In this document: positions 16,200-32,789 of the stretch, one piece after another
Numbering within the stretch: position 1 is the stretch's first letter
How the letters are laid out: every line of letters starts with the position of its first letter
From: Marchantia polymorpha subsp. ruderalis
Lineage: Eukaryota; Streptophyta; Marchantiopsida; Marchantiales; Marchantiaceae
DNA: 64,000 nucleotides
Assembly: GCA_037833965.1 (NCBI GenBank)
Contig: AP031355.1
Coordinates: 9,883,501 to 9,947,500 of the forward strand
Reading direction: 5' to 3'
The notes under the pieces: model-generated
What the model was told of the DNA's origin: nothing
Databases searched by the model: none
Seen by the model: only the letters and a program-made list of their open reading frames with translations
Position numbers and translations under genes: made by a program

Positions 16200-17445
16200 T
16201 GTGGTACCCCACTTTTGGCAATTTTGAGGAAATTAAAACATTTTTGAAAAAACTGTACCCTGGCAGCATGGTAAATAGCCTTCGGTACATCAAAACAGAG
16301 TGAATCCGGAAGATCGCGGGGATTCTCGAGGGATCTTGTAGAATCTGGGATTTGGGGTGCCGCAGCAAGGACAGGCACCACCCTCCCTGCGAGCTCCGCA
16401 GTTAGGATCTCTACGGCGCAAGGCGCAAAACCCGCCTTCGGAGGTTGCGTCCGCGGCTGTAGGGAAACCCCCGTAATTAGGTAAACCCTCGGGCGCCTTG
16501 ACCAAGTTAGGGTCCCGTTGGCAAGAGCTCGACGCGCTGATTCTAACGAGCCCAAGAACGCTTGGAACGGACGAGGACTTAGGGAGTTATCGCTACTGGA
16601 AGAAACGGAGGCGGTCGCCTACGGCGGAAGGAGTTCGCCACCGGCGCGAATTCCGCCTACGCGGAAGGGGGATTCAAGTTTGTCCTATGCACGGACGAAG
16701 GCGTTCGCCTGTGCACAGGCGAAGTAGGGTTAGGGAAGGCGCGAAGTCCGCCTACGCACAGGCGTTCGCCTGTGCACAGGCACTTCGGCGTCGGCGGAAA
16801 ATCCGCCTTGGGCCCTAGAAATGCGCCTTGTGAGGTAGAAAGTGTACGGCGCCTTCCGCGCCAGCGCAGCGCCGCGTACGTCGGAAGAGCCGCCAGAGTA
16901 ATCCAATAGGTACGGACCGTGCGGACGGCACGGGTGGATGCGCTCTTGGACGGACGGAGTTGCGGCGGCGGAAGCGCCGACGGAGAGACAAGGAACGGAC
17001 AGACTGGACGGAGACGGCTGACCACGGTCAACGCCTTCCGCGCCAGCGCAGCGCCGCGGACGGAATTCGCCTGCGCACAGGCGAACGCCTGTGCACAGGA
17101 GGATGTTCAAGTTCCACGCCGGCGGAGAATCCGCCGAGGCCCCTGCCTGCGCACAGGCACGAGTTGAATTTTTGTCCGACATGCGGACACACGCGTCAAG
17201 GCGGAAGGAGATTGGCCGAGGGACGGTACGAACAAGTGTACCGCGCAAGGCGGAAAACTCGCCTTCGGCGCTACGCTCCCATGTCCGCAGGGCGACACGC
17301 TCGCGGAGTTCAAATCCGCCAATTCGAGCGTGAGAGTTTAATCGACGACGGCGGAGCGTGAAGCCGCGCGTGAGAGCGATGACCGTTCCAGCGTACAGCC
17401 GGCGCGGCCATCAAGTGAGACGTTCTTCACGACCAAGAGCCGACC

Positions 17446-30300: not shown

Positions 30301-32789
30301 GCGTGCGGAGGCCGCACCATCGGCGGGAAGTCCGCCGATAGATGCGCCTTCGGCGGTAGGGCCTATAGGCCAAGGAACATCGGGCGTGCGGCCCCCGGCC
30401 ATGTCGCCTTCGGCGATAGATGTCCGCGGCGCTACGCCTGCGGCGGACAAGGCGCCGGCAAATGCGCCTGCGCACGGGCCGGGCACGGCCCCCACGGACC
30501 GATCAAGGGAGCAGCAGACGATGGAGCGGAGCGACTGCCCGCGGGATGAAATCTCGATGCGCGATGCGCAATCCAACCCCGCGCAGCCACCCTCCGCTCG
30601 ACCGCCTTCGGCGACGGACGACGGCGACAGAGAGAACGCGGTAGGCAATCAACAAGCGAGCGACGGGGATGCCGCTCGGGTACATTCGCCTTCCGCCTTA
30701 GACATTTTGGCGACGAGCAGCGAGGCTGCAGCCGTGCCTTCGTAGGCAGCACACGTCGAGGACGTGCAGCCCCACTCGGGGCAGTCGCCGACGCAATCAA
30801 TGGCGACTGAAATTCTCCACTCGGATGATGACGACGGAGGCTCCACGGAAGAAATGTCAGGAGCAGAAGACACCGAGGAGGAGGAGGAGGAAATTGTTGG
30901 AGCGCCGGCGGCGGCGCTCTCTGAGCAGGTGATTCCGTTGCTGCGGTACTGGGATCGCAAGGTCGATAAATACGCCGACCCACTCCAGCCGGGATCTTAC
31001 ATCGAGTTAGTGCGCAGGCGGACTCGCACTAAAGTCCACACCAGCAAGCTATTAGCTAGAGTGGACCAGGAGTTGAGGGACTTGAAGGAGAAGCATGAGT
31101 GCTTGTGGGGTCAGTACAAGCTTAATCAGAAATTCTACAAGCACTCCGAGAAGATGAAGGATGAGAAACTGGGCGAGCTCACCAAGGAGCAGGTGAAGGT
31201 CAAGGAAGCGCTCAACTCTGAGCAGGCCCAGAATCGGATTTTGTAAGAGGAGCTCGTGCGACAGACGCGGTTGTTGGAACAATGTCAGCTCGCACGGCAG
31301 GCGGATGAAGAGTTAATCCGCAGGTTGCAGTCAGAGTGTGGCGAATTGAGAGCGCAACGTGCTGAAGCCGAATCGCAATTAGTGATGATTGAAGAGGATC
31401 GCAGGAAGGAGGCGGATCGCACGAAGGTGGAGACGGCGAGGCGAGTCGCCCACTGTCTCAAGGGCTACGCCCACTGGGAAGTGAAGGCGCAGGAGAAACT
31501 CACACTGCGTGAGTTTGAATTGCGCGCAGCCGGGTTGTTGTCAGGCGACAGTAGGAGTCGGCGGAAGGTAGCGAAGAAGCTTGAAGCCTTTCTGTCGAAG
31601 GCACAGGATACCATGTCCGCCCTCGAGGGGGAGGTGTCCGCGGCGTTGCAGCGGTTGGGACTGCGCAGTCGAGCGGAAGAGTGGCAGGGTAGGGAGTTAG
31701 TGCGCGGCAGTCGGCCGCGCAGGAGACGTAGTACAAGTTCCGCGGAGTGTAGTGTAGCGTGGTTCCGTGCAGGCGTGTAGCGTAGTACAGTGTAGTGCTA
31801 GGTAGGACTTAGAGGGTATAAAATAGTTCCAGGCGTTTTGCCTGGGGTTCTTTCCCATCAGAAGTATAGATCAGGAACCCATTTCCTTTGCGTGTTTGTG
31901 TCCTTGAGTTCTGTCACCACGCACGAGGAGTTACAACTTAGCGTTCCGCATTTTGTAGCTGAAGGCCTTCGGCCGAATGTTCAGAGCTAGTACATTGGTT
32001 AGAGACTTGAGTAGTTCGGATCTGCACCTGCGGGTGACTGCCGATGCTCAGAGCCAGTGACTAGTTAGATACTTGAACAGTTTCGCCCCTACACCTTCGA
32101 GTGTTTCTTTCTGATTGTACTCCTTGGGATTTTTCCCCTGAATGCCAAAGTGAAGTTTTGCTACTTCGTGTAAGCCTTGGTTGTAAATTCAGGTTACGCT
32201 GCAGCAGGTGCCTTGAGGGTAACCCCTGTAGTATTTCTGGGAATGACAAGTGCCTGAGAATTAAAACTCTTCAATAGACTGTTGTTGTGTTACTGGAATG
32301 TTTCACAGTGAGTCCTTCAGTGCGGACCTGTGTTCTCTGCGCGTTTTGTGAGTTGAGAGTGTTGTTCACCGCGTAGGAGTGACTTCGATCCGAAGTAGGC
32401 AGTCCAAACCGGGTTTCCTACACTAGCAGCAAGCTAGTGGAAGTGTTGTAAAAGCCGGAGTTGGAAGTCACTGCCCGCAGCTTTGCCGAGTGTGCTCTTG
32501 AGAGACTTTCCCCCTGAAATCTTGAAGTAGAGGTCCTAACGGATCTCTGGGTTGTGTTTCTGTAGTTTCAGGTGTGTGTGTGTGTGTGTGTTACGCTGCA
32601 CTGTGCGACCTCCGAGTGCGCTCCGAGTGGACACTTGCAGTATTTCTGGGAGTGACAGTTGCCTGAGAATTCAAACTCCTCAATAGTCTGTTAAAACGTG
32701 ACACTTTGTACCCTGTGTGTTCCTCTGTCCCTGTGGGATCGACCTTTCTACCACTATATTGCAGTTTTAGCCTTTAGTGGGTTATTACA
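27397..32789 (+). repeat. 3' LTR of the giant-LTR element
   Basis: 5393 bp, collinear with the 5' LTR (offset 11197 as far as the ORF end). It has a shorter GT tract near 32573 and about ten base differences that I could see. In the RNA its U3 part supplies the ORF copy downstream of pol. Confidence 0.95.
28643..31780 (+). pseudogene. 3' LTR copy of the U3 ORF, two in-frame stops
   Basis: Nearly identical to 17446-20583. It carries the shared TAA (31244-31246) and one extra nonsense change, CAG to TAG at 30743-30745, ending the first frame at 700 residues. Because both LTRs come from one RNA, the extra stop arose after integration, while the shared TAA was already in the transposing RNA. Confidence 0.85.

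What the first reader, a model, noticed from the sequence alone, without database searches (positions are those of the whole stretch)
16200..32789. Gypsy element with 5.4-kb LTRs that each encode a large U3 protein
The element boundaries are certain (TSD TGTTC, inverted TG...CA termini, PBS, polypurine tract). The ORF lies upstream of the TATA box, so in the 5' LTR it is in U3 and in genomic RNA it is a third cistron after pol, carried by the 3' LTR. The layout is like retroviral genes placed in the 3' LTR, but the protein is of unknown type and I know of no described plant Ty3/gypsy family with this design.
Basis: partly seen in the sequence, partly recalled or inferred. Interest (0 to 1): 0.92.

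Follow-up and report, generated by a model that had tools for sequence, protein, structure and literature searches.

The report
Retrotransposon gene carried inside its LTRs
In a liverwort genome (Marchantia, inferred), a high-copy virus-like jumping element carries a large gene inside the repeats at its two ends, where other plant jumping elements usually keep only control sequences; the gene's protein sequence has been conserved by selection, and it likely helps the element copy itself, but what the protein does is untested.

Summary
Window 16195-32794 is a Ty3/gypsy element (TSD TGTTC; LTRs 5,399 and 5,393 bp). A ~1,045-codon frame lies in U3 of each LTR, ending 36 nt before the TATA box. 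In this copy it is broken (stops after codons 867 and 700); the 997-aa frame belongs to a neighbouring solo LTR. Other copies carry the ORF in the same place; 21 of the 41 full-length matches scored have no internal stop. It is a real gene: dN/dS is 0.12-0.22 in eight comparisons with other LTRs (approximate; dS is mostly >1.3) but 0.94-2.11 in the other two frames. Between A-subfamily copies it is mostly 0.17-0.30 (gag median 0.20), between B copies 0.25-0.51, and 0.71 between the LTRs of one element. Selection therefore acts during transposition and lapses afterwards. All named relatives are Marchantia polymorpha. No significant Pfam, PDB or fold match was found, nor a transmembrane segment. 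I infer an oligomeric, perhaps nuclear accessory factor; expression and function are untested. Gag-pro and pol are separated by UAG-CAAUUA, a tobacco-mosaic-virus-type readthrough context, at 525 of 525 sites. My library searches listed no plant Ty3/gypsy family of this design.

The parts
16195..16199 (.). target-site duplication TGTTC, left
   Evidence: sequence; same TSD in the two segmental duplicates L039/L040 and L041/L042
16200..21598 (+). 5' LTR (U3 about 4.45 kb holding the ORF; R-U5 about 0.95 kb; U3/R border inferred from the TATA box)
17446..20049 (+). LTR ORF in the 5' LTR, 867 codons then TAA; the same frame then stays open to 20583
20620..20629 (+). TATA box TATAAAATAG, 36 nt after the ORF frame's final stop
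21623..21640 (+). primer binding site TGGCGCCGCTGCCGGGGA, 24 nt after the LTR end
21687..24518 (+). gag-protease ORF (Retrotrans_gag, CCHC zinc knuckles; aspartic protease just under the Pfam cut-off)
24516..24524 (+). UAG CAA UUA: stop in the tobacco-mosaic-virus-type readthrough context between gag-pro and pol, same frame
   Evidence: 525 of 525 genome sites with the same flanks have TAG
24519..27359 (+). pol: RT, RNase H, integrase; no chromodomain found
27384..27394 (+). polypurine tract
   Evidence: sequence
27397..32789 (+). 3' LTR
28643..30745 (+). LTR ORF in the 3' LTR, 700 codons then TAG; the TAA of the 5' copy is also present at 31244-31246; frame ends at 31780
32790..32794 (.). target-site duplication TGTTC, right
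   Evidence: sequence
33869..39166 (-). neighbouring solo LTR of sister subfamily B, flanked by TSD ATAAC (33864-33868, 39167-39171)
34956..37949 (-).
41424..42242 (-). N-terminal domain of the LTR ORF in an older family-D LTR (33287-43499, itself split by the solo LTR; its flanking 5-mers match at 4 of 5 bases)
43522..44545 (-). N-terminal part of the LTR ORF in the oldest, family-F LTR; family D and the focal element sit inside LTR F

Best explanation
This is a Ty3/gypsy retrotransposon family whose U3 holds a large protein gene, so an insertion carries that gene in both LTRs and a solo LTR can still hold a long open copy of it; the protein is predicted to be a soluble coiled-coil accessory factor that likely acts in the nucleus to help the element's own transcription or copying. 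Shown: position, duplication in both LTRs, wide distribution, and selection on the protein during the transposition cycle with decay after insertion. Inferred: (a) origin by a shift of the polypurine tract to upstream of a 3' extra ORF, so that reverse transcription swept the ORF into both LTRs; (b) expression as an mRNA that begins in the 1.2 kb of U3 upstream of the ATG, or is spliced from the genomic RNA, and ends in R of the same LTR; (c) oligomerisation through the C-terminal coiled coil, with the conserved helical N-terminal domain binding a partner or nucleic acid. My own odds: real selected gene 0.97; needed for efficient transposition 0.8; nuclear regulator rather than assembly factor 0.4.
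For: Anatomy. Further copies: 51 matches to the protein, 41 of them full length and 21 of these 41 without an internal stop; only 46 of 13,057 first-look candidates, the best ones, were scored, so the share of open frames is not a genome-wide rate. ORF in both LTRs of independent insertions with their own TSDs. Selection: subfamily B against eight LTR segments (one of A, two each of C, D and E, one of F), N-terminal domain, true-frame dN/dS 0.12-0.22, other frames 0.94-2.11 (seven of eight dS values exceed 1.3, so those ratios are approximate; F rests on 90 codons). Whole ORF, B against A copy L043: 0.28, against 1.05 and 1.30 in the other frames. Between A copies 0.17-0.30 in 18 of 21 pairs; within five LTR pairs 4 synonymous to 9 nonsynonymous changes (one a new stop), ratio 0.71. 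Gag yardstick: median 0.20 over 27 of 30 copies. No hydrophobic span (19-residue maximum 1.38), basic clusters (RKRR at 340), acidic run, and a C-terminal part rich in Glu, Leu and Arg that I read as coiled coil. ORF stop 37-67 nt before a TATAAA in three of four divergent LTRs; in the fourth, L062, the TATAAA is in place but the last open piece ends earlier.
Against: No RNA or protein evidence. No significant family or fold: Pfam (scattered weak or low-complexity hits only), PDB sequences, Foldseek on two low-confidence models (mean pLDDT 51 and 54). Nuclear site, coiled coil and regulation are read from composition. The focal copy's own frames are broken. Constraint is weaker among B copies (0.25-0.51 in 21 pairs) and in a young pair of family C (0.41); the within-element contrast rests on 13 changes. 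Family D, high in copy number, showed no pair of copies at element spacing among the 40 best places.
Confidence: 0.55

Rival explanations
1. The protein is a cytoplasmic partner of Gag or of the element RNA (assembly or nucleic-acid chaperone), supplied from U3 as a third cistron.
For: Constraint similar to that of gag in the A subfamily; low-confidence models are largely helical and no membrane segment was seen.
Against: Acidic run and basic clusters look more nuclear; no similarity to known Gag or ORF1-type proteins in Pfam.
Confidence: 0.3
2. It is an envelope-like protein, as has been speculated for extra ORFs downstream of pol in other plant elements (PMC6317226, passage).
For: Position after pol in the genomic RNA, as an env gene would be.
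Against: No transmembrane-grade segment (maximum 19-residue hydropathy 1.38) and a Pro/Ala/Arg/Ser-rich middle.
Confidence: 0.04
3. A captured host gene or passenger carried without function.
For: No similarity found to a known retroelement protein family; central region of low complexity.
Against: Purifying selection across several LTR families, similar to that on gag, and lost after insertion; the only named relatives are M. polymorpha hypothetical proteins.
Confidence: 0.06
4. A spurious open frame caused by the GC-rich, stop-poor LTR.
For: The U3 stretch is about 60% GC, with long antisense and off-frame ORFs in the same place.
Against: Third-position excess and low dN/dS only in the true frame; the other two frames give 0.94-2.11 in eight comparisons with subfamily B.
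Confidence: 0.01

Closest known systems
Mouse mammary tumour virus Sag, an ORF in the 3' LTR (PMC3840357, passages read)
   Same: An accessory protein gene sits in the LTR and follows the other genes in the genomic RNA.
   Different: Sag is a type 2 transmembrane glycoprotein of a retrovirus; here the protein is about three times longer (Sag size recalled), has no transmembrane segment and belongs to a plant Ty3/gypsy element.
Plant elements with extra ORFs (eORFs) in REXdb: Ogre, Tat, Athila, SIRE (PMC6317226, passages read)
   Same: For the Ty3/gypsy ones: no chromodomain, large LTRs (up to about 5 kb there), an extra protein of unknown function.
   Different: There eORFs are placed up- or downstream of the polyprotein and described as highly heterogeneous; here one conserved protein lies in the LTR. 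An LTR-borne ORF could have been counted there as an eORF, which I could not check.
Phygy and Selgy, the moss and lycophyte non-chromovirus clades in REXdb (PMC6317226, passages)
   Same: Seed-free plant Ty3/gypsy elements whose polyprotein fills nearly the whole internal region.
   Different: Described as rather short and contrasted with eORF-bearing OTA elements; here LTRs are 5.4 kb with a protein gene.
Retand elements with a long pol-to-3'LTR stretch (PMC11963269, two passages)
   Same: Extra coding capacity 3' of pol.
   Different: Their common extra ORF is antisense with a Transposase_28 domain, described in the pol-to-3'LTR region.
Retroelements with a stop codon between gag and pol, such as Tca2 and VdLTRE5 (PMC3441728, two passages; PMC2194720, abstract start in the listing)
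   Same: Gag and pol separated by a stop codon.
   Different: Those stops are UGA, and VdLTRE5 and Tca2 are said to lack CARYYA; here the stop is UAG with CAAUUA.

Membership tests
Ty3/gypsy LTR retrotransposon (Metaviridae) | gag, aspartic protease, RT-RNaseH-integrase in that order between LTRs with PBS and PPT and a 5-bp TSD | tested here: met
   domain order (protease hit just under the Pfam cut-off); for LTRs, PBS, TSD
Chromovirus branch of Ty3/gypsy | chromodomain at the integrase C-terminus | tested here: not met
   no chromodomain among Pfam hits of the pol ORF at E<=1
OTA, Phygy or Selgy lineage | placement on an RT/RH/INT tree | not tested
   no tree built; absence of a chromodomain fits non-chromovirus lineages only
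Element with LTR-resident protein gene (MMTV-Sag-like layout) | ORF wholly inside U3 and present in both LTRs of one insertion | tested here: met
   focal element; L049/L050 and L051/L052 with matching TSDs
MMTV Sag protein family | type 2 transmembrane glycoprotein | tested here: not met
   no hydrophobic span
PF20167 putative plant transposon protein (Transposase_32) | profile match above the curated cut-off | tested here: not met
   13.1 bits against a cut-off of 45 in one piece (E 0.093); not listed for the other 7 queries, the 26 or the 10
Leaky UAG of tobacco mosaic virus type | UAG followed by CARYYA, same frame downstream | tested here: met
   UAG CAAUUA, 525 of 525 sites with that flank; motif from PMC4132726 passages. 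Readthrough itself not testable here

The most novel reading that the evidence does not exclude
The LTR is a self-contained gene: promoter, protein and terminator in 5.4 kb. Solo LTRs left by recombination therefore remain sources of a trans-acting nuclear factor that serves all family members, making this a plant counterpart of complex retroviruses, with its regulator gene engulfed by the LTR through a polypurine-tract shift.
Probability: 0.3. Interest if true: 0.88.

Novelty: new variant of a known kind. Interest (0 to 1): 0.74.

Why it matters
LTRs are normally treated as regulatory repeats. Here they carry a conserved gene of about 1,045 codons, so reverse transcription doubles it, and solo-LTR formation, usually the end of an element, can leave the gene in place: the neighbouring solo LTR has a 997-codon open frame. 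Selection on the protein is similar to that on gag, so it is probably part of the element's life cycle rather than cargo. Marchantia polymorpha is a genetic model, so function is testable. The family also pairs this with a uniform readthrough-type stop between gag-pro and pol. Repeat annotation that treats LTRs as non-coding would miss such genes.

Tried and rejected
PF20167: one sub-threshold Pfam hit (E 0.093), matching my recollection of that family's pattern, but absent from the other queries; the family search in the own genome found nothing, nor in its 14 control genomes, so it is uninformative. Kept as an untested lead. Fold comparison: two AlphaFold2 models, pLDDT 51 and 54, no Foldseek match below E 0.001. 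Taxonomic range: three protein searches gave 2, 82 and 5 hits; every hit with a source name is M. polymorpha (2 of 2, 68 of 82, 5 of 5), and the other 14 are unnamed. Candidate lists were capped and the method favours close relatives, so wider absence is not shown. ORF in both LTRs for family D: no pair at element spacing among its 40 best places, unresolved. Literature: ten searches, of which 22, 29, 47, 52, 59 and 71 bear on plant LTR ORFs or liverwort elements (71 returned no paper); judged from titles, abstract starts and the passages cited, none showed a plant Ty3/gypsy family with an LTR-encoded protein. Subscription papers are not held. The pair L055/L056 was dropped as one element because its flanks do not match and its LTRs lie nearer to different subfamilies. 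L039/L040 and L041/L042 are segmental duplicates of the focal insertion (same TSD and flanks), not independent evidence. A figure in tension with mine: PMC9985172 (passages) counts 222 full-length LTR elements in a M. polymorpha ruderalis assembly, while I count 525 gag-pol junctions here; a different assembly, subspecies or counting rule may explain it, not checked.

Full report
WHAT IS THERE. The window is G000:C6:9883501-9947500 of a 241.5-Mb, nine-contig genome. I take it to be Marchantia polymorpha or a very close relative: protein P0001, annotated as M. polymorpha subsp. ruderalis AXG93_1200s1210, matches C2 at 94-98%, every named relative is M. polymorpha, and subtracting the eight listed contig lengths leaves about 5.6 Mb for C1, which would fit a small sex chromosome beside eight autosomes (karyotype recalled). 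The focal element runs from TSD 16195-16199 to 32790-32794 (TGTTC), with LTRs 16200-21598 and 27397-32789 at 99.67% identity. Pol is in Ty3/gypsy order without a detected chromodomain.

THE ORF. In the 5' LTR the frame starts at 17446 and ends at 20583, 36 nt before TATAAAATAG; it is therefore wholly in U3. In this copy it is interrupted: TAA after codon 867 in both LTRs and TAG after codon 700 in the 3' LTR.

OTHER COPIES. A protein search of the genome scored the best 46 of 13,057 candidates and returned 51 matches; 41 are full length and 21 of the 41 have no internal stop. I sampled 10 of the 40 PBS-containing loci and fetched both LTR places. The ORF spans start to end in 7 of 10 5' places and 6 of 10 3' places; the other places are partial, carry a deletion, or hold other sequence. 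Three independent insertions have matching TSDs and the ORF in both LTRs: the focal one, L049/L050 and L051/L052. L043/L044 also has it in both, but its left end was not found by exact motif. Two of the ten (L039/L040, L041/L042) are segmental duplicates of the focal insertion, and L055/L056 was set aside because its flanks differ. Among the 40 best places, 13 adjacent same-strand pairs lie 11.16-11.21 kb apart.

OTHER FAMILIES. Within this window the LTRs are nested: the focal element and the family-D LTR sit in the family-F LTR, and the solo B LTR sits in the family-D LTR; all four carry the ORF. N-terminal domains of families C, D and E are about 50-63% identical to B. In L059, L060 and L061 the frame's stop lies 37-67 nt before a TATAAA, followed by R-U5; in L062 the TATAAA and LTR end are in place but the last open piece ends earlier. 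LTR ends without a PBS behind them suggest solo LTRs in L061 and L062.

SELECTION. One search compares subfamily B with eight segments (A one, C two, D two, E two, F one) over the N-terminal domain: true-frame dN/dS 0.12-0.22, the other frames 0.94-2.11. Seven of the eight dS values exceed 1.3, so those ratios are approximate; F rests on 90 codons. D against D gives 0.18; a young pair within C gives 0.41, nearer neutrality. Whole ORF, A copies against B: 0.28-0.33, or 0.20 for L042 with its deletion; in most copies lowest in the N-terminal third and highest in the middle. Between A copies the ratio is 0.17-0.30 in 18 of 21 pairs and 0.40-0.70 in the three other close pairs (one of these, W5-L041, is a segmental duplicate); between B copies it is 0.25-0.51 in 21 pairs. 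The two LTRs of one element, pooled over five pairs, differ by 4 synonymous and 9 nonsynonymous changes (0.71; one is the new stop). Gag of the same family, against the focal gag, has a median of 0.20 over 27 of 30 copies (0.07-0.93; the three highest, L017, L021 and L036, have fewer alignable codons and look interrupted). This is what a gene used in transposition and left to decay afterwards should show, though the within-element figure rests on 13 changes.

THE PROTEIN. Three parts: a conserved domain (about residues 85-317, helical in low-confidence models), a Pro/Ala/Arg/Ser-rich middle (in the focal LTR with in-frame PVHR units), and an acidic run followed by a Glu/Leu/Arg-rich stretch that I read as coiled coil. 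No transmembrane segment. No significant Pfam, PDB or fold match. Mechanism is therefore inference: a soluble oligomeric accessory factor, with nuclear action on the element's own LTRs slightly preferred over a role in assembly.

GAG-POL. Gag-pro ends in UAG CAA UUA and pol continues in frame. A pattern leaving the codon free found 525 sites; the pattern with TAG fixed also found 525. CARYYA after the stop is the tobacco mosaic virus readthrough hexanucleotide (PMC4132726 passages); a leaky UAG in the TMV context was shown in plants (PMC2754532 passages). This is invariance within a young family; readthrough was not measured.

NOVELTY. LTR-resident accessory genes are known in MMTV (PMC3840357 passages). 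The REXdb survey (PMC6317226 passages) describes extra ORFs up- or downstream of the polyprotein and LTRs up to about 5 kb, but the passages I read do not mention protein genes inside LTRs; I did not read its additional files. I rate it a new variant of a known kind.

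Noticed in passing
window 24516-24524: Gag-pro and pol are in one frame separated by UAG CAA UUA, a tobacco-mosaic-virus-type readthrough context; 525 of 525 sites with the same flanks have TAG.
   Followed up: partly
window 21599-21640; L009-L038: The PBS starts 22-24 nt after the LTR end in 30 of 30 loci (the window's own included), with a short AAGAAG...CTTCTT inverted repeat in the gap; this gap needs explaining for cDNA end formation.
   Followed up: partly
G000:C6:28269210-28359018; also C2:31348181-31381761 and C4:10351176-10373606: Tandem arrays in which copies repeat at about 11.2 kb (LTR plus internal region); in one array eight listed copies lie at exact multiples of 11,156 bases.
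   Followed up: no
G000:C6:9.69-9.90 Mb: The focal insertion lies in a segmental duplication: two further copies share its TSD and flanks (L039/L040, L041/L042).
   Followed up: partly
window 16708-18945 and elsewhere: Palindromes such as CCTGTGCACAGG (26 in the window, 7 in the 5' LTR, 4 of these inside the ORF, all in one codon phase, coding PVHR) and GCCTTCGGC are scattered in LTRs and flanks.
   Followed up: partly
window 33287-43499: Family-D LTRs are numerous (2,803 first-look candidates) but the 40 best places include no pair at element spacing, as if mostly solo LTRs.
   Followed up: no
window 5348-9942 and 59049-61610: Further long ORFs, one with a Gag domain (8779-9942), pointing to at least one other retroelement in the window.
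   Followed up: no
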